The position numbers and the translations under genes are program-made. A model generated the notes under the pieces. The model was not told the DNA's origin. It did no database searches and saw nothing but the letters and a program-made list of their open reading frames with translations. A stretch of 64,000 nucleotides of DNA from Candidatus Hydrogenedentota bacterium (GTDB lineage: Bacteria > Hydrogenedentota > Hydrogenedentia > Hydrogenedentales > JAEUWI01): NCBI GenBank assembly GCA_016791475.1, contig JAEUWI010000007.1:62001-126000 (forward strand). Direction: 5' to 3'. Every line of letters begins with the position of its first letter. Position 1 is the first letter of the stretch. Shown here one piece after another: positions 47,792 to 58,800 of this stretch.

Positions 47792-47986
47792 GGTGGTGCG
47801 CTCTCTCCCTGCCCGGCCAGACCCATGCGCGGGGTGTCCGCGCAAAACCCGCTAAGCTTATCGGAACCGGGCCCGGGTATCAATTTTCGGCCACTGGACG
47901 ATCATTGCAACCTCCCTCTCCCGCACTCCATAATGGGCGGGAATCCACAAGGCACCACGGGGCCAGGCCCCTTGAAAGGAATCAAT

Positions 47987-48106
47987 ATGAAACACCTCAC
48001 CTCCCTGACTCAGGCTCCCCAGCCTGCCGAATCCATCTTCCGCGCCATGCTTGAGACCAAGCGCGAGCTGATGGAAGACAATTCCTTGTTGAAACAGCTT
48101 TTCTGA
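47987..48106 (+). CDS. 39-residue hypothetical protein
   Basis: Starts at ATG 47987 with AAAGGA 6 bases upstream. The product MKHLTSLTQAPQPAESIFRA... is amphipathic and ends DNSLLKQLF. It is 27 bases before the amphi-Trp gene and has no hydrophobic segment. A good ribosome site and the placement support it; no homologue is known to me. Confidence 0.55.
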   Translation: MKHLTSLTQAPQPAESIFRAMLETKRELMEDNSLLKQLF

Positions 48107-48133: not shown

Positions 48134-48361
48134 ATGAGCGACAAGAGCGAGCGCGATATCGAAAAGGTTTACTCCACCGCCGACTATGTGGCCAAACTGC
48201 GTCGGCTGGCCGACGCATTGGAATCGGGCGACAAGTTTGAAATCCAAATCGCCGGCGAGCGCATTTATGTGCCCGTTCGGGCCGAATTCAGCATCGAGCA
48301 CGAGCGCGGCGAGGACGAAGAAGAGATCGAGTTTCAGATCCGCTGGAAGCGGGAAGTCTGA
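48134..48361 (+). CDS. Amphi-Trp domain protein
   Basis: 75 residues. The core FEIQIAGERIYVPVRAEFSI with EIEFQIRWK matches the amphi-Trp domain, a short amphipathic beta-hairpin with a conserved Trp near its end. The N-terminal SDKSERDIEKVYSTADYVAKLRRLADALESG is helical. The family has no known function and often stands with other small genes, as here with the 39-residue gene. Confidence 0.85.
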   Translation: MSDKSERDIEKVYSTADYVAKLRRLADALESGDKFEIQIAGERIYVPVRAEFSIEHERGEDEEEIEFQIRWKREV

Positions 48362-48395: not shown

Positions 48396-50519
48396 TTATT
48401 CTTCCCTTTCCAGGCCCAGACGGAGCGTGAGGAACTCGTCCATCGCACGACACACCCCCATCAGGCTCGCATCGATCTCCGCGGGGCTCAGGCCATGTCC
48501 GACGAGACGCTCGACGCCTTCGCGGTGTTCATCGCGCATTTCTCCGAGCGTCGTTCCCGAGCTGTGTCGCGCCAGGATGCGCAGACTGCGGAAACTACCC
48601 TCGCTCAACCCGTTGCCCGTCGTGAGCGACGTTTTGTCCTCGAAACGGGTCGTGAAGTCGTGCCATTGTTGTCCATAGGGCAGGAGGTAGTTCGCGCTGT
48701 ACGTCTTCTCGGCCGCGTTGGCATAGCACCGCAGAATGCCTCCGCCCACTTTTTCACACACCACCGCGCCGAGCAACCTATAGCCCAGTTCCGCCATCTC
48801 CTTGTCGGTTTCGCGAAAGGTTTTCGCCTTTGCGCGCATCATCGTGTCCATCGACCTGGCCTTATAGTCCGCCTCCAGAAATCGGCTCGACTCACCGGCG
48901 TAGATCACGTTCTCCGTGGCCGGTAGAGCGTTCTCCCGGGCCATCTCTTCCTCGAACTTTCGCCAGTCTCTGAATTTCGTTGCGTTGTGGCGCTCGATCT
49001 TCGAGAAATCCCACCGCTCTTTGAGCCGGTGACGGAAGAAGAGCCCGCAGAGCACTTCGGTCTCCCGCCGATCACCGGGATAGAGCTGTAATCCCTCCCG
49101 GCGTGGCGGATCGTTGCAAAGCACCATGTGCCGGGCCGCGCCATGGAGAACGGCCTCCACTTCGGATTCGTCCCGCGCCGTTACGGGAGCGCGCGATTCC
49201 GCCCCGCGAAAAAGCTCCAGCATCCAGCGCACATCATCGGATGACATCGGTGTGGAGGCGGATTCAATCAACCACGCCCCTTCCTCCACGCGGCCCGCCA
49301 TTCGTGTTCTGGCGCACTCTCCCTTCCCAAGCAGCTCCAGCCTCGCACCGTCGGGCAGCGAAGCGAAGAGCTCGCCGAGCCGCTGTCGGGCTCTGGGCAT
49401 AATGGCGGTATTCATGCCGTCCAGCGTGATGTTTACACCGAAGCCCTTCTTGACCGGCGTACAGGTCGTGTAGCTTGGTGTCTTGCACGCGGGCCAGTCC
49501 AGCGCGCTGTCGAAGCGAACACAGACCGCGTAGGCGGGGTAGGTGTCCTGGTAGAACGTCAGGCGCGCCATCAGAAACAACGCGTGCAGGGGAACCCGCG
49601 CCGGACCACCCTCCAGCGCGTGCAACGGGAGTTTTCCCGCCGCCCTGATGATTCGCAGCGCGGGGTCCTCCGGCGGCTGCGGCGTTTCCACACGTTCAAA
49701 CTCCTCCAGGGCCTCGGCAAACTTCGGGCCGAGGCCGAGGTGGTGAAGGAAGCGCCAGAGATTCCCGATATCGCTTTCGCGCTCTCCATCGCTGAGATTC
49801 TGGCCAGTCAGAATGCGCAGAACCTCGACACGATCATGGGGTATGGAGAATTGTGTGAGCGCATCCGCGATATACTCCCCGTGGAGCGCGAGGAAACGCG
49901 GGTAGACCTCCTCATCCGGACAGCCCGCCAACTCCGCCAGCATGGCGTCGGGAAGAGGGATGCCGCTCTCACTGTAGCACGCGGCGATATACGCCAGCGG
50001 CGAAGTTTCACCGGAATCCTCCTCCTCCTCCTCGTCATATTCGTCGTTGTCGTCAAGATCATCCGAGTAGGCCTCAAAGAACTCATCTTCGAACTCGAGC
50101 GACGGAAGGCGCTTCGCAGGCAATGCAGGGAAGCCGGGCAACGCCACCGATACGACCTCGACGTCCTCCTCCCCCTCGTCGTCCTCATCGAGGTCAACCC
50201 AGTCAGACTGGACTTCGGCGGGAACGACCGCATAACCGATCCACTGGAATTCGTGGACCGTATCAAAGGGCGCGACGCCTTTCGCGCGGACGTGCAGACG
50301 CCAGCGGCAGGCATCCTCCGTCGTCGTAAGAAAACCGGGCCCATCCAGTGATGCGAGGGCCGTTACGAGGTCATCCGCGCCCGTGGTCCAGACCGAAGCC
50401 ATGGCCCAGCACCAACCGTTGGCCTCCTCGACCTCCGATACGTTTAATCCGGCCAGCGCGGCGGTGAAGGCTTCGGGCGCGGTGTTGCGCGCGGCGACGA
50501 TGTGTCTGCGGATGGCCAT
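48396..50519 (-). CDS. Large unrecognised protein, paralogue A
   Basis: 707 residues, cytoplasmic by composition; no signal or membrane segment. I do not recognise the family. Shared with paralogue B (50643-52700): EEANGWCWA at 31-39, WRLHVR...PFDTVHEFQWI, PHDRVEVLRILTGQ, LHHLGLGP, LLxLFRGAE-like helix, FFRHRLKERWDFS, GESSRFLEADY, and the C-terminal GLSEGSFRSLRIL plus CRAMDEFLTLRLG. A specific feature is an acidic insert at about 112-170 with runs of Glu and Asp (YDEEEEEDSGE). No catalytic triad, nucleotide or metal motif is evident. Starts 123 bases after B's stop. Confidence 0.8.
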   Translation of the reverse strand: MAIRRHIVAARNTAPEAFTAALAGLNVSEVEEANGWCWAMASVWTTGADDLVTALASLDGPGFLTTTEDACRWRLHVRAKGVAPFDTVHEFQWIGYAVVPAEVQSDWVDLDEDDEGEEDVEVVSVALPGFPALPAKRLPSLEFEDEFFEAYSDDLDDNDEYDEEEEEDSGETSPLAYIAACYSESGIPLPDAMLAELAGCPDEEVYPRFLALHGEYIADALTQFSIPHDRVEVLRILTGQNLSDGERESDIGNLWRFLHHLGLGPKFAEALEEFERVETPQPPEDPALRIIRAAGKLPLHALEGGPARVPLHALFLMARLTFYQDTYPAYAVCVRFDSALDWPACKTPSYTTCTPVKKGFGVNITLDGMNTAIMPRARQRLGELFASLPDGARLELLGKGECARTRMAGRVEEGAWLIESASTPMSSDDVRWMLELFRGAESRAPVTARDESEVEAVLHGAARHMVLCNDPPRREGLQLYPGDRRETEVLCGLFFRHRLKERWDFSKIERHNATKFRDWRKFEEEMARENALPATENVIYAGESSRFLEADYKARSMDTMMRAKAKTFRETDKEMAELGYRLLGAVVCEKVGGGILRCYANAAEKTYSANYLLPYGQQWHDFTTRFEDKTSLTTGNGLSEGSFRSLRILARHSSGTTLGEMRDEHREGVERLVGHGLSPAEIDASLMGVCRAMDEFLTLRLGLEREE

Positions 50520-50642
50520 GGAGAATCCCTTTGTCTGGAACTGAAAGGATGGTCAGGAACTCTATACTGCGCTATCATCCTACGCGGGTATCGCGGGACA
50601 GTTCAATACCCTTGGGGAGAAGAGAGAGGGGCGGCGTCCGGC

Positions 50643-52700
50643 CTACAGGCCTCCGAGCCGCCGCATCAGGTACAGGTCGATCATGCGGCAGGCACCTTGA
50701 AGGCTGCCATCGATAGAAGTCGGGTTCAGACTGTGTTTCTTGATACGGGCGACGCCAAGGGTGTGTTCTTCGTAAAGTTTTTCCAAAGTCAGGCTTGGAC
50801 GGCTTTGAGTGAGAATCCGAAGGCTGCGAAAACTGCCCTCACTCTCCCCCGTGGTGGTGATCAGCAGTGTTGCGTCGTCAAACAGGGTGTAGAAATCAAT
50901 CCATGTCGTTCCTGCCGATTGGGCATGATAAAAGCCAAAGATCCCTATCGTCCCATTCGCATAGCAGCGGCGTATGCCCGGTTCGGCGCGCTCGCAAATG
51001 ACCGCGCCAGCACAGGTAAAGCCGAGCGCCGCCATCGTCTCATCCACATGCTTGAAATTCTGCGCGGCATTTCTCATATCGCGTTCCATAGCGCGGGTGC
51101 TAGAGTCCGCCTGATAAAATCGGCTTGCCTGACCGTCGAGTACCATTTGCTTCGAAGCGGGCTGGGCAAACTCCCGCGCGGTCTTGGAGTCGAGCGCCTT
51201 GACGCGCTTCAAGAGATCGACCTGGCGCAGATCGAACGCGGAAAAGTTCCACCGGTGCCCGAATCGATGGCGAAACAGCAACTGGCCGATGCTTTCCGCT
51301 TCGGCAGCTTCACGGGGAAGCAGCGCAAGCCCTTCGCGACGGGGTGGTGTCTTGTAAAACACACTGTGCCCTGATGACGCAAGGAGGATGGCCTCCATCT
51401 CGCGGTCATCCCGCATGACTTGCGGCCTCCGTGCTTCTGCTGTTCGGAACAAGGCAAGAATTTCATCCATGTCATCATTGGCCAGAGGCACCGAGGCGGC
51501 TTCCAGCCGCCACTGATCGCCCTCCACCTGTCCGGACAGGCGCATGCGCTCATACGCGCCGTTGAGGAGGAGCTCCAGGCGTGCGTCTGGCGGAAGATGC
51601 CTAAGCAGTCCGCCCAGACGGCACCGTTCATTGTGCGCGCATTGATGCGGGCCGTTCCCGACAAAAAGGCAGAAGCCATCGGACATGGACGTGTATGCGG
51701 CGTAAGGCGGTATCCACGCCGATGGGCGCTCCAGTGGCTTGTCCGACCACATGCGCGCAACACATTCGGTTCGGTTGTCCCGATAGCTCACGCATCGTAT
51801 GAGGAGAAACACCTCCGCCAGCGGGACGAAGAACGGCCCCGCTTCAATCTCGTACAACGGGAGTGCGCCTGCGGCCTCGACGACTTCCGTGGCGGGGTTC
51901 TCGCGCAGCTCTTCTCCGGGAATTACATATCGGCCAACCAATTTCCGCTCTATGTCAGGAGCGAGACCAAGGTGGCGGAGGAAGCGCAGCATGTTGCCCG
52001 AAGACTGTTCGAGCTCACCGAAAATAAGGCTTTCCCCGGTGAGCATCCGGATAACTTCGCCGCGGTCATGGGGGATTTCGAACTGCTTCAGGGCATCGGC
52101 GACGTATGCGGCATGTCGCGCGAGGAATCCGAGATAGACTGCGTTGTTGGGCAGTTCCGCCAGTGTCGACACCAGCGATGGGGGCAGCGTAATTTCAGCA
52201 TGCTGAAACGTGTCCGCGATATACGCAGCCACACTTGGTTGGGGCCGCTGGTCGCGGTCTTCGCGATAGGCGTCGAAGCTCTTGTCCGCAAATTCGAGGG
52301 GAGCGAGGGATGAAGGAGGTACAAGATAGTGATGAATAAGTTCGATCAGGGCTGGTGTGCGCAAGATGGTGAAAGGCTCTTCCTCGTCATCCGCCGTGCA
52401 GATGGTTCCCGGTTCGCGTTCAATCCAGTGATAAACGTGCATCGTATCGAAGGGCTGTTCGGCTAGTTTGCGAAGGTGGAGCCGCCAACGCCGCGGGTAC
52501 TCTTCGGTCACGAGGAGACACGGTCCCTCCAATGTGTCGAGGCTTCTCAAGGGTGATGGCGTACCTGGTACGAGTACGGGAATATAGGCCCAACACCAGC
52601 CGTTGGCCTCTTCAACTTTCAGCAGGTACCTGGGTGAGAGCGCAGTGGCGAGAGCTTCCGGCGTGGAATTTCGCGCACCGACGATGTAGCTGTGGATCAC
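50643..52700 (-). CDS. Large unrecognised protein, paralogue B
   Basis: 685 residues from a GTG start with AAGGA 7 bases upstream. Colinear with paralogue A over its full length: EEANGWCWA at 30-38, WRLHLR...PFDTMHVYHWIER, PHDRGEVIRMLTGE, LRHLGLAP, LFRHRFGHRWNFS, GQASRFYQADS, and SEGSFRSLRIL near the C-terminus. It lacks A's acidic insert. The two therefore arose by duplication, and the conserved blocks (an N-terminal ~100-residue part, a helical middle and a C-terminal part of ~180 residues) suggest three domains. Function unknown. Confidence 0.8.
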   Translation of the reverse strand: MIHSYIVGARNSTPEALATALSPRYLLKVEEANGWCWAYIPVLVPGTPSPLRSLDTLEGPCLLVTEEYPRRWRLHLRKLAEQPFDTMHVYHWIEREPGTICTADDEEEPFTILRTPALIELIHHYLVPPSSLAPLEFADKSFDAYREDRDQRPQPSVAAYIADTFQHAEITLPPSLVSTLAELPNNAVYLGFLARHAAYVADALKQFEIPHDRGEVIRMLTGESLIFGELEQSSGNMLRFLRHLGLAPDIERKLVGRYVIPGEELRENPATEVVEAAGALPLYEIEAGPFFVPLAEVFLLIRCVSYRDNRTECVARMWSDKPLERPSAWIPPYAAYTSMSDGFCLFVGNGPHQCAHNERCRLGGLLRHLPPDARLELLLNGAYERMRLSGQVEGDQWRLEAASVPLANDDMDEILALFRTAEARRPQVMRDDREMEAILLASSGHSVFYKTPPRREGLALLPREAAEAESIGQLLFRHRFGHRWNFSAFDLRQVDLLKRVKALDSKTAREFAQPASKQMVLDGQASRFYQADSSTRAMERDMRNAAQNFKHVDETMAALGFTCAGAVICERAEPGIRRCYANGTIGIFGFYHAQSAGTTWIDFYTLFDDATLLITTTGESEGSFRSLRILTQSRPSLTLEKLYEEHTLGVARIKKHSLNPTSIDGSLQGACRMIDLYLMRRLGGL

Positions 52701-52793
52701 GGTTGCTTCCTTGGTGCCGCACGAGATTGGATGTTGGCGACGATGACCTGATCTGACTGGAGTGTATGCGCCAGTCTATCGGTACTACAAGAA

Positions 52794-52831
52794 TCGGGGC
52801 AAGCGGGGATTGGAGTCCACGCTTGCCCCGA
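52794..52831 (-). terminator. Hairpin after the acyl-CoA dehydrogenase
   Basis: Perfect 12-base arms 52794-52805 and 52820-52831 (TCGGGGCAAGCG and its complement), loop of 14, about 30 bases past the stop of the dehydrogenase on the minus strand. It separates the dehydrogenase from the tandem paralogues. Confidence 0.75.
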
Positions 52832-52861
52832 CTATACGTCGATTTAAATTTCGCTTTCCGC

Positions 52862-54010
52862 CTACAACCCCAGCCAGCTCGCGATGATGTTGCGCTGCAC
52901 TTCATTGGTGCCGGAGTAGAGGGTTCCGCCGATGGAATCGCGGAGGGTCCGCTCGACTTCGTGCTCGGTGAGGAAGCCGTGACCACCGAAGATCTGGACG
53001 GTGTCCAGCGCGGTCTTCTGGAGGCACTCGCTCACGTAGACCTTCACCATGGAGGCGTTCATGGCGTTGTCGCGGGCCTTGCCCACGCGCATGGCGGCCT
53101 GGTAGACCAGCAGGCGGGCGGATTCCAGACGGATTTTCATGTCGGCAATTTTGTGGGCGATGGCCTGGTGCTTTCCGATGAGCTTGCCCTGGGCCGTGCG
53201 GGTGCGGGCGTAGTCGATGGACTTTTCCATCAGGTGCTGCATGGTGCCGAGGTGGCATGCGGCGATGCAGACGCGCTCCCATTCCATGGATTCGCTGAAG
53301 ACGACGGGGCCGCCGCCGGCAGTGCCGAGAATGTTCTCCGGGCCCACGTAGACGTTGTCGAAGACGAGTTCGCCGAGCATGGCGGTGCGCAGGCCCATTT
53401 TCTCGAACTTCTGGCTGGGGGTGAAGCCGGGTGTGCCCTTCTCGACGACGAAACCTGTAATGCCGCCGTGGGCGCCCTTGGTCTCGTCGGTCACGGCATA
53501 GACCACGGCCACATCGGCCACGGGGCCGTTGGAGCTGAAGATCTTCACGCCGGTGATTCGATAGCCATCACCGTCCTTCACGGCGCGCGTGGCCATGTTG
53601 AAGGCGTCTGAGCCGGAGGTCACTTCGGTCATGCCGTTTACGGCGATAAGGCTGCCGTCGCACAGGCCGGGCAGGATCTTTTCCTTCATCTCCGGGGTGG
53701 CGTGGCGCGAGATGGGGATGACGCAGGCGAGAAGATGGGCGCAGACGGAGAAGACGAGACCGCCGTCGCGGCAGCCATAGCCGAAGGCTTCCAGCGCCAC
53801 GGCCACGCTTAGAGGATCCAGTTCGCTGCCGCCGTAATCGCCCGACACCGGCAAGCCCTGGAGGCCCATCTCGCCGCACTTCAGCCAGAGATCGTGGGGG
53901 AAGATCTGCTCCCGATCGCGCTCGGTGATGTTCTCGTTCAATTCATTCTGGGCGAAGCGGATGATCTGCTCGCGGAGCAGTTTCTGGTCTTCGTTCAGGG
54001 AGAAATCCAT
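52862..54010 (-). CDS. Acyl-CoA/acyl-carrier dehydrogenase, isovaleryl/prolyl-carrier type
   Basis: 382 residues from the ATG at 54010 (AAAGGA 6 bases upstream). Family blocks: NGMTEVTSGSDAFNMATRA (flavin loop), ITGVKIFSSNGPVADV, and the C-terminal TLYSGTNEVQRNIIASWLG. The usual catalytic Glu of the IYEGTxEIQR block is Ser366 here, while Glu245 in SMEWERVCIA aligns with the catalytic Glu of isovaleryl-CoA and prolyl-carrier dehydrogenases. The same strand carries an adenylating ligase and carrier protein upstream, so a carrier-bound substrate is more likely than a free acyl-CoA. Confidence 0.9.
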   Translation of the reverse strand: MDFSLNEDQKLLREQIIRFAQNELNENITERDREQIFPHDLWLKCGEMGLQGLPVSGDYGGSELDPLSVAVALEAFGYGCRDGGLVFSVCAHLLACVIPISRHATPEMKEKILPGLCDGSLIAVNGMTEVTSGSDAFNMATRAVKDGDGYRITGVKIFSSNGPVADVAVVYAVTDETKGAHGGITGFVVEKGTPGFTPSQKFEKMGLRTAMLGELVFDNVYVGPENILGTAGGGPVVFSESMEWERVCIAACHLGTMQHLMEKSIDYARTRTAQGKLIGKHQAIAHKIADMKIRLESARLLVYQAAMRVGKARDNAMNASMVKVYVSECLQKTALDTVQIFGGHGFLTEHEVERTLRDSIGGTLYSGTNEVQRNIIASWLGL

Positions 54011-54090
54011 TGTGGGTCCTTTTAGAGTTTTGTGAGCGTCCGTCGGGTGCAAACTCGATTGACCGGTGCGGAACACAGCTAAAGCGCAAA

Positions 54091-54244
54091 CTCGTTACCA
54101 CGGTCCTCCGTGGTAATGCCTACCGTGCCGCTCCAGCGGCACAACCGCTTGCAAAGTGGCGGTGACACTACGGGGTTACTCTCGCAACACTGTTCACGCT
54201 GGAGCGTAAACCTATGCATTACCACGGAGGACCGTGGTAACGAG
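54091..54244. repeat. Long nested palindrome (TTACCACGG family)
   Basis: Perfect 29-base arms 54091-54119 and 54216-54244. Each arm contains TTACCACGG-N4-CCGTGGTAA, a hairpin in itself. Between them sit GTGCCGCT-CC-AGCGGCAC (perfect) and TTCACGCT-GG-AGCGTAAA (nearly perfect). It lies between the dehydrogenase start and the ligase stop. Confidence 0.9.
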
Positions 54245-54275
54245 CGCATACGAAAACCCTCGTCTGCACCGCTAT

Positions 54276-55823
54276 CTATTCCATCGTCAACAGTTTCTGA
54301 TAGTCCACCTTGGCCGTGGAAGTCTTGGGAAGGCCGTCCACCGCAATGAACTTGTCGGGGATCATGTAAAGCGGTACTTTCTTTGAGCAGAACTGCTTCA
54401 TGGCGATGAGTGAGGGTGGCTTGTCGCCGGTCCAGTTGAGGTAGGCGCGGATGAGCACGCCATTCTCCGGATCGGGCGTGGCCACCACGGCCGCCTCGGT
54501 CACGTTCTCGTGGCTGTAGAGGGCCGCTTCGATTTCTCCCAGCTCCACGCGATAGCCGCGGCGCTTCACCATGCGATCACGACGTCCGATATACTCGTAG
54601 TCGCCGTTCTCGTCGATTTTCACCACGTCTCCGGTCTTGTACCACTTGCCGCCATCGGCGTCGACATAGAAAGCTTCGGCGTTGCGCTGGGGCAGGTTCC
54701 AGTAACCCACCATGACGGAGCCGCCCTTGACATAGAGTTCGCCCTCTTCGCCACGGGGTACTTCCTTATCCAGAGCATCCACCACCATGCCCACGTCGCC
54801 GGAGCAGTCGATCCCAATGGGGAAGGGTTCGGTCCGCTCCTCGGGGATTTGGCCCACGACTTCGTAATAGGTGCATACGTTGGTTTCGGTGGGGCCATAG
54901 AGATTGAAATAGCGCGGCTGGGGCCACATGGTCATCACCGCCCGCAGATGCTTCACGGGGAAGACCTCGCCCGCAAAGAAGATAATGCGGAGGGCGGAGT
55001 GGTCGTGGGGCGCGTCTTGCCCGAATTCCACGAGCAGGCGCAGAATTGAAGGGGTGGAATACCAGATGGTGATCTTTTCCGAAGCGATGACCGCCGCCAG
55101 TTTGCTCGCCTGCTTGCCCAGCGTCTCGCCGAGCAGCACCAGCTTTCCGCCATGCTTGAGGCAGACGTAGATGTCCAGGATCGACAGGTCGAAGTGGAAA
55201 GGCGCATGGGAGGAGAAAACATCCTCGCAGGTGGGCTCGAAGGCCTCGCTGCACCAGTCGATGAAAGCCAGGCCGGTAGCATGGGTGTGCATCACGCCCT
55301 TGGGCTTTCCGGTCGAGCCGGAGGTATAGAGGATGTAGGCCAGATTGGTGGTGTCCACATTCTCGAAGGTCTGGGCCGGGTCCGGCGCGGCGGCCAGGAG
55401 CACCATGGGCACGCCGAAAGGATCGAGGAAATCGAGGGCGCCTCCATGGGTGATGCGCTCGGGACCGAATTCCGCGATGAGACCCTCGGCCAGCTTTTCC
55501 GCCACAACGATGGCGCGCACCGCGCAGTCGGAAAAGATGTAGGCATTGCGCTCGGCGGGCGCGGTGGAATCCACGGGCACATACGCCGCGCCCGCGCGAA
55601 GGGCGCCGAAGACGCCGGTGAGACTACCGATGGACTTGGGCATGCAGATGCCCACGCGATCACCCGAGGCGACGCCTGCGGCGCGCAGGCGCTGCTCCAT
55701 GGTCTCGGCCAACTTCTGGAACTGCTCGTAGTTGACGGAGACCTCGCGTTCGGGATCCACGACGGCGCACCGACCGGGGTGTGCCCCGGCGGAACGCTCG
55801 AGAAGCTGGTGGAGCTGGTTCAT
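54276..55823 (-). CDS. Amino-acid/acyl adenylating ligase (AMP-dependent synthetase)
   Basis: 515 residues, a stand-alone adenylation enzyme. A3 loop ILYTSGSTGKPKG, A5 YFNLYGPTETN, A7 YKTGD, A8 GRRDRMVKRRGYRVELGEIE and the A10 lysine in PKTSTAKVDYQ. Sequence HAPFHFDLSILDIYV fits the group that includes D-alanine (DltA) and L-proline carrier ligases; the exact substrate cannot be read by eye. Its ATG overlaps the last base of the carrier gene's stop (TAATG), so the two are coupled. Confidence 0.93.
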   Translation of the reverse strand: MNQLHQLLERSAGAHPGRCAVVDPEREVSVNYEQFQKLAETMEQRLRAAGVASGDRVGICMPKSIGSLTGVFGALRAGAAYVPVDSTAPAERNAYIFSDCAVRAIVVAEKLAEGLIAEFGPERITHGGALDFLDPFGVPMVLLAAAPDPAQTFENVDTTNLAYILYTSGSTGKPKGVMHTHATGLAFIDWCSEAFEPTCEDVFSSHAPFHFDLSILDIYVCLKHGGKLVLLGETLGKQASKLAAVIASEKITIWYSTPSILRLLVEFGQDAPHDHSALRIIFFAGEVFPVKHLRAVMTMWPQPRYFNLYGPTETNVCTYYEVVGQIPEERTEPFPIGIDCSGDVGMVVDALDKEVPRGEEGELYVKGGSVMVGYWNLPQRNAEAFYVDADGGKWYKTGDVVKIDENGDYEYIGRRDRMVKRRGYRVELGEIEAALYSHENVTEAAVVATPDPENGVLIRAYLNWTGDKPPSLIAMKQFCSKKVPLYMIPDKFIAVDGLPKTSTAKVDYQKLLTME

Positions 55824-56089
55824 TACTTTCCGGCGCTCTTCGTGTTGACCGTGTTGGCGATCAGGGTGAGGGTCTCGAGATTGTCCGAGCCGATTTCATG
55901 GGCCTGAAACTCGATACCGTATTTTTCTTCCAGAAAGGTCACCAGCTTTACCGTGGAGATCGAATCCAGGATGCCGCCGGAGATCAGGGGGGTTTCCAAG
56001 TCGAGGGAATCGGGATCCTCGCCGGGGAGAAAGGTATCGAGAATGTAGGCCTTTACGTCGGCCTGGATGGATTCAATGCTGTTGCTCAT
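55823..56089 (-). CDS. Acyl/peptidyl carrier protein
   Basis: 88 residues with the phosphopantetheine site Ser43 in GGILDSISTVKL. Acidic helices around it (QADVKAYILDTFLPGED; VTFLEEKYGIEF) are typical. GAGG precedes the ATG. It lies between the MBOAT-SGNH gene (27-base gap) and the ligase (1-base overlap), so the ligase should load this carrier. Confidence 0.93.
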   Translation of the reverse strand: MSNSIESIQADVKAYILDTFLPGEDPDSLDLETPLISGGILDSISTVKLVTFLEEKYGIEFQAHEIGSDNLETLTLIANTVNTKSAGK

Positions 56090-56116
56090 GGGGGCTTTCC
56101 TCTTTCCTGTAACTGC

Positions 56117-58702
56117 TTACCGGGTTGCGGTTGCCGCGTCGGGCTGGCCCTGCGCCACTGCGCCGCCGGCAAGTTCCGCGTCATGCTTCTTGATGGTCTC
56201 ATACAGGTGCTCCGCCAGGAGGCGGTGCGCCAGGGCATTCGGATGATCGTCGAAATCCGACACCTGGATTTCCTTGTCCGGGTAGCCCTTGTAGGCCCCG
56301 GAATAATCCTCGATGATGTCGAAGCCCGCCTTCCTCGCAAAGTCGAAGAGCTCCTTGATGTCGTTGTCGGAGAAAGACACGCGACCTTTCTCGGGCATGT
56401 AGATGAAGGCCGTCTTCACGCCTTTGGCGCGGCAGGATTCGGCGAATTTGGTCAGCGACCATTCGAGGAGCTCCGATCCATAGGCGCTCAGCCGGATCTT
56501 CAGCACGGCGTTGTCCATGTCGGGCGTCACACCGGCTTTCTTCACGATCTCCTCCACGAAGGGGTCGGGCAGCGCCTTGCCGCCCTTCACGCGCTGCACC
56601 AGGTGATCGATGATCCATGTCTTCTCAATGCGGTGGCAGAAGATGTACACCGCGTCGAGATCGAAGTTCAGCATGGTCGAATCGAGAACGATCGCCTTCT
56701 GGATCGGGTCGTAGCCGTTTACCGAGAAGTTGAGCAGCTCGTAAGGCATGCCCTCGGCGTTGAGGCGGTCTTCCGCCAGCACATCGCACACTTCCGCATC
56801 GCCGATGCCCCAGCCCATCGTGTGGGAGGAGCCGATCAGGCCGATCCGCTTCACGCCGGCGGGCTTTTCCTTCGTGTAGGGCTTGTCGCGCATGCCCCAT
56901 TCGTTCGTCGTGTAGACCTTTCCCTCGTAGGTCATGTTGGTCGAGGGCGTCATGGCCACGCCGAGATAGTCGTCGCGCTTCGTGTTCATGGTCTTGCGCC
57001 ACTCGTCGAAGTAATTCTTCGGCTGCTTGTTGAACATGGCCTGAAGCTCGGGGTTGAAGCGGTCCACCTGGATCAGATCTTCGTAGTAGCCCCGCTGCAT
57101 TTCCGCCGCGTCCGCGGCGTTGAGCGAGGGATTCTCGATCGCGTCCAGAACGGCCACCAGCGTGGGGTTCATGTGGCTCTGCACTTCGGAGAGGGCCATG
57201 ATCATGACGAAGAGACCCGTAAGGCTATTGAGCACGGCGTTGCGCCAGAAGTTGTAGGGCTTCAGGTTGGCCGCGCGCTGTTTCGCGGCGCCACCCACCT
57301 GCCATTGGTCACGGCCCACGATGATGGCCGTGGCCGCGAGCAGCAGCAGCACGCCCCCGATCTTGAGCACCGCCTCCAGATCCCAGTTGCGCAATTGCAG
57401 TAGCGTCGCGCGCCATTCGCCGATGGAGTCCGAAGTCCAGAGCGACCACAGGAAGGTGATCGTCAGGAAGGTCAGCAGCGTCTTGCCCGCCAGGATGGCC
57501 GCGAGTTTCGCGCTGTCCGCCGGAGTCTTGGGCACGAGCTTCTTGTGGGGCCGGGCCTCGTTCCATACGCTGAAGGTCACCAGTATCCCCAGCAGGATCC
57601 AAAAGAGAATATCCTGCGGAGTGAAGAGGGCCGCGCCGCGCAGCCAGAACCACTGGTAGGCATGGAGCGCCCAGGTGGCGAAAAAGGCAATCAGGGTGGC
57701 GTAGATCATGCCCTGGGTCGTACCCAGTTTCCGCAGCCGGAAAAACAGCGGATAGAAGAAGACCTTCATCATGAAGTCCTTCCAATAGATATTGATCCGG
57801 CGCCAGAAATCGGTGAAGCTCGACGCGAGCACGTAGTGGTGGTTGCCTTCGGGCAGGTTGAAGCCGAAGAGGTGGAGCAGCCCCACAATCGTGTGGAACA
57901 TGCCCGATACCTGGAGATAAAGGAGGTAGGTGCAGACCATGTGCTGGAAGAAGCCCGAGGCGCCTTCGATTTCAGCGGGGCCGACAATCATGAACTTGTA
58001 CAGGAAGCGGTAGAGGATAAGCTGGATGCCGCCCCGGATCATCCACTTCACGCCCGTCTGATAGATCTTATACGGATCTTCGTTGTAATAGGTCCGGCAG
58101 AAGGTCTGGTAGTCCACTACCGGAAAAAGGGGGAAGAGGATGTTGGGGATCATGAAGAAATAAGCCAGCGAGCGCCAGAGGCTGAAGGGCGCCGACTTGT
58201 GGACCAGATCGTACACGTAGATGATCAGGCGGAACATGAACATGGCGCCGAGGATCGGCCAGATCGTGCTCGGCCAGGGCGAGGCCACCCAGCCCGCGCG
58301 AAACACCGCGAGGATGAGTGCGGCACCGAAAACCAGGCCCAGGCGCACATTCATGGACGCCGGCACATGGCACAGACCGATGAGCACCCCGCCAATTCCG
58401 ATGAGCCAGGCCGCGCTCGCCGGGCTCTGGCCACCGATGAGGTAAACCAGGCAGCCGAGACTGAGCGCCACAAAAAAGGGAAGTCGGAACCGCAGCGGCA
58501 GTACGTGATTGATGGGAAAGGCGACCGCCACGATCAGCAGCAACTGGCGAAAGGCCTCACTCTCAAGGCGAACCGCCTTGAACATGAGCGCCACAAGGAC
58601 AACCTGAAATACGACGACCGAGAATCGCACAAGGTTCCCCAGGGCAAAGAAGCCCGCGGGTTCATCTTTGCCCGTTGACACACTGGTGGCGCTCACAACC
58701 AT
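56117..58702 (-). CDS. MBOAT O-acyltransferase fused to an SGNH hydrolase-like domain
   Basis: 861 residues from the ATG at 58702 (AAGGA 5 bases upstream). Residues ~20-510 are an MBOAT with about twelve membrane segments; NHHYVLASSFTDFWRRINIYWKDF is the characteristic block and His347 in TWALHAYQWFW the presumed catalytic His. After a linker, ~615-845 is an SGNH-like domain: GLIGSSHTMGWGIGD (nucleophile block, Ser625/626) and DDHPNALAHRLLAEHL (Asp/His block). In the Dlt system the same two functions are separate proteins, DltB and DltD. First gene of the cluster behind a sigma54-type site. Confidence 0.92.
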   Translation of the reverse strand: MVVSATSVSTGKDEPAGFFALGNLVRFSVVVFQVVLVALMFKAVRLESEAFRQLLLIVAVAFPINHVLPLRFRLPFFVALSLGCLVYLIGGQSPASAAWLIGIGGVLIGLCHVPASMNVRLGLVFGAALILAVFRAGWVASPWPSTIWPILGAMFMFRLIIYVYDLVHKSAPFSLWRSLAYFFMIPNILFPLFPVVDYQTFCRTYYNEDPYKIYQTGVKWMIRGGIQLILYRFLYKFMIVGPAEIEGASGFFQHMVCTYLLYLQVSGMFHTIVGLLHLFGFNLPEGNHHYVLASSFTDFWRRINIYWKDFMMKVFFYPLFFRLRKLGTTQGMIYATLIAFFATWALHAYQWFWLRGAALFTPQDILFWILLGILVTFSVWNEARPHKKLVPKTPADSAKLAAILAGKTLLTFLTITFLWSLWTSDSIGEWRATLLQLRNWDLEAVLKIGGVLLLLAATAIIVGRDQWQVGGAAKQRAANLKPYNFWRNAVLNSLTGLFVMIMALSEVQSHMNPTLVAVLDAIENPSLNAADAAEMQRGYYEDLIQVDRFNPELQAMFNKQPKNYFDEWRKTMNTKRDDYLGVAMTPSTNMTYEGKVYTTNEWGMRDKPYTKEKPAGVKRIGLIGSSHTMGWGIGDAEVCDVLAEDRLNAEGMPYELLNFSVNGYDPIQKAIVLDSTMLNFDLDAVYIFCHRIEKTWIIDHLVQRVKGGKALPDPFVEEIVKKAGVTPDMDNAVLKIRLSAYGSELLEWSLTKFAESCRAKGVKTAFIYMPEKGRVSFSDNDIKELFDFARKAGFDIIEDYSGAYKGYPDKEIQVSDFDDHPNALAHRLLAEHLYETIKKHDAELAGGAVAQGQPDAATATR

Positions 58703-58800
58703 GATCTTCCTTCTCTCTCCCGATTCCTGCAGTTGCCCCGAGTGGGGTATCGTGAAATTCTCACTATACACGGCTCGCTGGCCGAGCAACTCCTGCTGAA

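What the first reader, a model, noticed from the sequence alone, without database searches (positions are those of the whole stretch)
48396..52700. Tandem pair of large proteins of unknown family
Two colinear ~700-residue proteins share several invariant blocks (EEANGWCWA, PHDRxEVxRxLTG, SEGSFRSLRIL) but resemble no family I know. One has a highly acidic insert, the other not. Paired large paralogues can form heteromeric complexes. They lie between small genes of unknown role and the acyl-transfer cluster, a typical accessory-region position.
Basis: seen in the sequence. Interest (0 to 1): 0.7.

Follow-up and report, generated by a model that had tools for sequence, protein, structure and literature searches.

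The report
Duplicated mosaic protein of unknown role
Two neighbouring genes in a bacterium of the phylum Hydrogenedentota encode an old duplicated pair of large soluble proteins, built from several undescribed modules that are shuffled among relatives and turn up on cyanobacterial plasmids; what they do is unproven, and toxin neutralisation is only the best current guess.

Summary
Two minus-strand genes (707 and 685 codons) encode full-length paralogues, 40% identical, with the quoted blocks present letter for letter. No protein-family library, PDB sequence or PDB fold gives a usable match. The host is a Hydrogenedentota bacterium. Family genes occur in only 7 of 68 genomes of the phylum; in the window's genus the copy number is 2, 1, 0 and 0. 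The protein is a mosaic: D1 (N-terminal), D2 (helical), D3/D3b (core) and D4 (C-terminal). Relatives carry D1-D2, D1-part of D2-D3/D3b, or X-D3-D3b-D4. D4 recurs at the front of an ankyrin-repeat protein on an Acaryochloris plasmid, and module X recurs in Synechocystis plasmid proteins. The pair is an old lineage duplication with saturated synonymous sites. The 685-aa copy evolves about twice as fast and has lost the family's acidic linker. No defence, toxin or recombinase gene lies beside the family genes. A heteromeric complex is untested; single-copy orthologues show that the partner is not obligatory. Best guess, weak: a cytoplasmic binding protein built like a polyimmunity protein. The lone Pertussis_S1 hit is sub-threshold and in one member only. 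A real undescribed family, but its function stays open.

The parts
48396..50519 (-). Family protein A, 707 aa (P0001), pI 4.8, no membrane segment or signal peptide seen
   Evidence: Open frame; 47% identical to the single-copy gene of G001 and 38% to that of G013
50643..52700 (-). Family protein B, 685 aa (P0002), fast-evolving paralogue without the acidic linker
   Evidence: 40% identical to A; sister to A with support 0.95; 111 against 50 unique changes; lowest GC3 of the called genes in the window, 0.655 against a mean of 0.778
50235..50519 (-). Module D1 of A (residues 1-95); ferredoxin-like beta-alpha-beta arrangement in a modest-confidence model
   Evidence: D1 HMM also matches G036, G033 and G042; structural matches Z up to 7.4, a common fold
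50004..50234 (-). Acidic linker of A (residues 96-172, 40% D/E)
   Evidence: Acidic in orthologues G001 and G013, 21% D/E in B
49695..50003 (-). Module D2 of A (residues 173-275), helical, with motif IPHDRxEVxRxLTG
   Evidence: HMM match in G036 over most of the module; only its C-terminal part in G033 and G042
49179..49667 (-). Module D3 of A (residues 285-447), helix plus three strands, twice
   Evidence: Model of 285-530: pLDDT mostly 60-90 up to about residue 440; no convincing PDB or viral fold match
48930..49178 (-). Module D3b of A (residues 448-530), motif PPRREGL
   Evidence: HMM match in G014, G033 and G042
48411..48908 (-). Module D4 of A (residues 538-703), motifs FEDxTSLTT and DEFL
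   Evidence: Shared with G014 (HMM 222 bits, but G014 is a row of that HMM) and, independently, with the N-terminus of an Acaryochloris ankyrin-repeat protein
52791..52833 (-). Strong hairpin between the acyl-CoA dehydrogenase gene and B, possible terminator
   Evidence: Fold of 52775-52845: -33.9 kcal/mol, z -5.4 against 200 shuffles; no long T tract

Best explanation
A and B are two old, diverged copies of an accessory, cytoplasmic, multi-module protein (D1, acidic linker, D2, D3/D3b, D4). Shown: the paralogy, the module boundaries by comparison with relatives, the mosaic combinations, the patchy presence, and the faster evolution of B. Inferred: with no recognised enzyme signature, shuffled modules, a module fused to ankyrin repeats, plasmid-borne relatives and a divergent tandem copy, the modules bind other proteins. 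The most likely specific role is protective: each module would neutralise an incoming or self-made toxin by binding it, as proposed for polyimmunity proteins, with B diverging to cover other targets. The toxin-binding step is a hypothesis with no direct evidence. The confidence below is for the protective mechanism; the description of the pair as a duplicated mosaic family is secure.
For: Mosaic architectures: D1-D2 in G036; D1, the C-terminal part of D2 and D3/D3b without D4 in G033 and G042; X-D3-D3b-D4 in G014. D4 opens an ankyrin-repeat protein on Acaryochloris plasmid pREC4: 40 bits, E 2.9e-10 among 20,000 shuffles whose best score is 13 bits; hhalign probability 96.5%. X of G014 matches plasmid proteins of Synechocystis. 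No transmembrane segment or signal peptide seen. Patchy: 7/68 genomes, 2/1/0/0 in the genus, neighbour loci without the gene. Old duplication: 108 identical codons observed, 95 expected from codon usage alone, at 265 shared amino acids. B is accelerated (chi2 23). The published description of polyimmunity proteins has the same traits: several domains in one chain, small loci of two or three tandem genes, usually no toxin gene in the operon, Imm-Ank fusions, mostly no enzymatic relatives (PMC3482391).
Against: No module matches a known immunity domain. No polymorphic toxin is encoded beside any family gene examined. All 7 carriers have RHS-repeat proteins, but so do 24 of 26 genomes of 5.3 Mb or more, so there is no association beyond genome size. 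Mosaic proteins with ankyrin repeats also serve regulation and scaffolding.
Confidence: 0.25

Rival explanations
1. A and B are ligand-sensing or scaffold proteins: the ferredoxin-like D1 senses a small molecule and the other modules recruit partners in an ordinary regulatory or housekeeping process.
For: D1 of the model resembles ACT, PII-like (PstA, GlnK) and other ferredoxin-like domains (Z 5-7); no toxin neighbours; acidic, probably flexible linker.
Against: The ferredoxin-like fold is very common, Z is in the range met without relationship, and the whole-protein model has mean pLDDT 48. Presence in 7/68 genomes argues against a core process.
Confidence: 0.3
2. A and B form an obligate heteromeric complex.
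For: Tandem, co-oriented, 123 nt apart, both kept as open frames since an old duplication.
Against: G001 and G013 carry one full-length gene only; B has lost 38% of the residues invariant in the other three. A facultative complex, or homomers, remain possible.
Confidence: 0.12
3. The proteins are enzymes of an unrecognised family, D3 or D4 holding the active site.
For: D3 has no convincing fold match; D4 keeps D628, H665 and D694 of A in all six compared sequences including Acaryochloris.
Against: No conserved catalytic-looking cluster in the family alignment, no family match, no conserved gene partner. The weak Pertussis_S1 hit (E 0.0012, below the Pfam cut-off) occurs in A only and not in B, G001, G013 or G014.
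Confidence: 0.15
4. B is a decaying copy without function of its own.
For: Fastest branch of the pair, lowest GC3 and codon score of the called genes in the window, lost acidic linker.
Against: 685 open codons although synonymous sites are saturated; it keeps 62% of three-way invariant residues against 32% identity elsewhere.
Confidence: 0.1

Closest known systems
Polyimmunity proteins of polymorphic toxin systems (Zhang et al. 2012, PMC3482391)
   Same: Several modules in one cytoplasmic chain, small tandem locus, no toxin gene beside it, an ankyrin-fused module, different module sets in relatives
   Different: No module matches a known immunity domain (SUKH, SuFu, Imm families); no toxin link shown
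Ankyrin repeat protein WP_187153000.1 of Acaryochloris marina plasmid pREC4
   Same: Its N-terminal 160 residues are homologous to D4
   Different: The rest is ankyrin repeats; no D1, D2 or D3 match
Synechocystis plasmid hypothetical proteins WP_028946481.1 and WP_011153610.1
   Same: C-terminal half homologous to module X of the G014 relative
   Different: X is not part of the window proteins; the cyanobacterial proteins lack D1-D4 matches
Pertussis_S1 (PF02917)
   Same: 19 bits over 71 residues of protein A
   Different: Below the curated cut-off, absent in every other family member scanned; treated as chance

Membership tests
Polyimmunity proteins | At least one recognised immunity domain | tested here: inconclusive
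   No Pfam or PADLOC match for the members scanned; unlisted immunity domains cannot be excluded
Polyimmunity proteins | Several distinct modules, in varying combinations among relatives | tested here: met
   Module HMMs give D1-D2, D1-part D2-D3/D3b, X-D3-D3b-D4 and D4-ankyrin combinations
Polyimmunity proteins | Small co-oriented tandem locus without toxin gene | tested here: met
   Two genes 123 nt apart, no toxin gene beside them
Polyimmunity proteins | A module found elsewhere directly beside a polymorphic toxin gene | tested here: not met
   None in the neighbourhoods examined; YhaV and VapBC near the cyanobacterial relatives are type II toxin-antitoxin genes. The sample is small
Polyimmunity proteins | Binds and neutralises toxins | not testable with these tools
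   Needs experiment
Pertussis toxin subunit 1 / ADP-ribosyltransferase | Family score above the curated cut-off, conserved in the family | tested here: not met
   19.2 bits against 21.3; only 1 of 6 aligned D4 sequences matches at all
Known anti-phage defence proteins | Match to a PADLOC model or position among defence genes | tested here: not met
   No PADLOC hit up to E 10; no defence gene recognised beside the family genes
ACT/PII ferredoxin-like sensors | Ferredoxin-like fold in D1 | tested here: inconclusive
   Best Z 7.4 over 69 residues, within the range of unrelated proteins; model of modest confidence

The most novel reading that the evidence does not exclude
D1, D2, D3/D3b, D4 and X are a set of undescribed interchangeable binding modules that bacteria of different phyla shuffle between chromosomes and plasmids, a new group of polyvalent protection proteins whose targets are unknown.
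Probability: 0.15. Interest if true: 0.6.

Novelty: new variant of a known kind. Interest (0 to 1): 0.32.

Why it matters
It defines an unlisted multi-module family in a phylum that is poorly understood (PMC11406978), and ties one module to a plasmid-borne ankyrin protein of a cultured cyanobacterium, where it could be tested. If the modules prove to bind toxins, they would add new immunity domains; if not, it is one more orphan accessory family.

Tried and rejected
Pertussis_S1 homology: rejected, one sub-threshold hit in one member. Fe-hydrogenase, PdxS and other PDB sequence hits: E 0.03 or worse, not consistent between the single-sequence and profile searches, chance. DNA-clamp or TBP-like reading of D3 from its strand order: neither stands out among the fold matches, best Z of any chain 3.3, left open. 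CYTH proteins near the top of Foldseek lists for D3: low probability and TM-score, rejected. Viral origin: no relative in viral contigs or phage records; three pattern hits in viral contigs did not match the module models. Gene conversion between A and B: identical codons barely above expectation. Structured RNA: no Rfam match in the window. The genome-collection scan found only one further locus, itself Hydrogenedentota, with two narrow patterns, so absence from other phyla is not shown. Whole-protein structure: mean pLDDT 48 with only three admissible sequences.

Full report
Observation. The two frames exist at the stated place on the minus strand: 50643-52700 (B, 685 aa, GTG start) upstream of 48396-50519 (A, 707 aa, ATG start), separated by 123 nt that hold a plausible ribosome-binding site before A. 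They align end to end at 40% identity and share the three quoted blocks exactly.

Organism and spread. The genome belongs to a phylum represented by 68 held genomes in one order; the best outside relative lies on a contig titled Candidatus Hydrogenedentota. Family matches occur in 7 of 68 genomes; an eighth weak match (E 0.003) is not counted. In the window's genus the four genomes carry 2, 1, 0 and 0 copies. G001 (47% to A) and G013 (38%) have one full-length gene each. The genomes are drafts, so single absences are not certain, but two loci were seen without the gene: G003 keeps the two-gene locus that precedes the gene in G001, followed at once by a different gene, and G005 keeps the acyl-transfer cluster with 677 nt after it and no family gene in that stretch, the contig ending there.

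Architecture. Relatives cut the protein into modules: D1 (about 1-95), an acidic linker (96-172), helical D2 (173-275), D3 (285-447), D3b (448-530) and D4 (538-703), numbering of A. G036 has D1-D2 before a stop codon; G033 and G042 have D1, only the C-terminal part of D2, a core corresponding to D3/D3b (D3 itself reaches the module HMM threshold only in G033, D3b in both), and no D4; G014 has a different N-terminal module X followed by D3-D3b-D4, and is cut by its contig end.

Modules outside the phylum. A D4 query found an ankyrin-repeat protein on plasmid pREC4 of Acaryochloris marina at E 0.08. A profile of the five Hydrogenedentota D4 sequences scores it at 40 bits, E 2.9e-10 among 20,000 shuffles whose best score is 13 bits, and profile comparison gives 96.5%. 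The match covers most of D4. Module X matches the C-terminal half of Synechocystis plasmid proteins (E 7e-4 in the collection search). The window protein A has no match in plasmids or phages as a whole query.

Structure. With only three admissible sequences the whole model is poor (mean pLDDT 48). D1 has a ferredoxin-like arrangement, Z up to 7.4, a range reached by unrelated proteins. D3 folded with D3b reaches pLDDT mostly 60-90 in its first 155 residues (helix plus three strands, twice), but no PDB match exceeds Z 3.3. That is no proof of a new fold.

History of the pair. A and B are sisters (support 0.95), so the duplication most likely postdates the split from G001. B has 111 unique changes against 50 in A (chi2 23) and lost the acidic linker. 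Identical codons at shared residues (108 of 265) barely exceed the 95 expected from codon usage, so synonymous sites are saturated and gene conversion is not visible, yet B remains open and keeps 62% of three-way invariant residues against 32% elsewhere. B has the lowest GC3 and codon score of the called genes in the window. This fits an old, still constrained, more freely evolving copy.

Surroundings. Upstream are acyl-CoA dehydrogenase, AMP-binding ligase, carrier protein and an 890-aa protein that I read from sequence as MBOAT-SGNH-like (Pfam gives no family for it); a hairpin (z -5.4) separates them from the pair. Downstream and convergent is an Amphi-Trp gene. No defence, toxin or recombinase gene was recognised beside the family genes, and the neighbourhoods of the relatives share no gene with each other that I could see.

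Mechanism. Not shown by any data here. The traits in hand (soluble, no recognised enzyme, shuffled modules, ankyrin fusion, plasmid relatives, tandem diverged copy, patchy presence) match the published description of polyimmunity proteins (PMC3482391) in architecture, but no known immunity domain and no toxin neighbour were found, and the RHS association vanishes when genome size is considered. I put this reading at 0.25, a sensing or scaffold role at 0.3 and an unrecognised enzyme at 0.15. Although sensing/scaffold scores slightly higher as a broad class, the protective reading is given as the best explanation because it is the specific mechanism that accounts for the mosaic and the tandem copy together.

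Limits. One genome-collection scan with two short patterns cannot exclude members in other phyla. Neighbourhoods were read from simple gene calls without full annotation. No domain function was tested.

Noticed in passing
52862-58789: Four-gene acyl-transfer-like cluster (890-aa protein read as MBOAT-SGNH-like, carrier protein, AMP-binding ligase, acyl-CoA dehydrogenase), 68-85% identical to a cluster in G005 (L063) of the same family; its carrier protein was not found in G001-G003.
   Followed up: partly
48134-48361: Amphi-Trp domain protein (PF20068) convergent with the pair, preceded by a possible 42-aa frame (47978-48106) without family match.
   Followed up: partly
L022:5466-7874 and L064:1-489: Long GEGEGE repeats in predicted surface proteins of two Hydrogenedentota genomes.
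   Followed up: no
L065 (G000:C3 around 76482-77984): 2302-aa open frame with many RHS repeats elsewhere in the window's genome, a candidate polymorphic toxin.
   Followed up: no
L039:5620-6360 and L040:5620-6354: Synechocystis plasmid proteins whose C-terminal half matches module X of G014; no Pfam family.
   Followed up: partly
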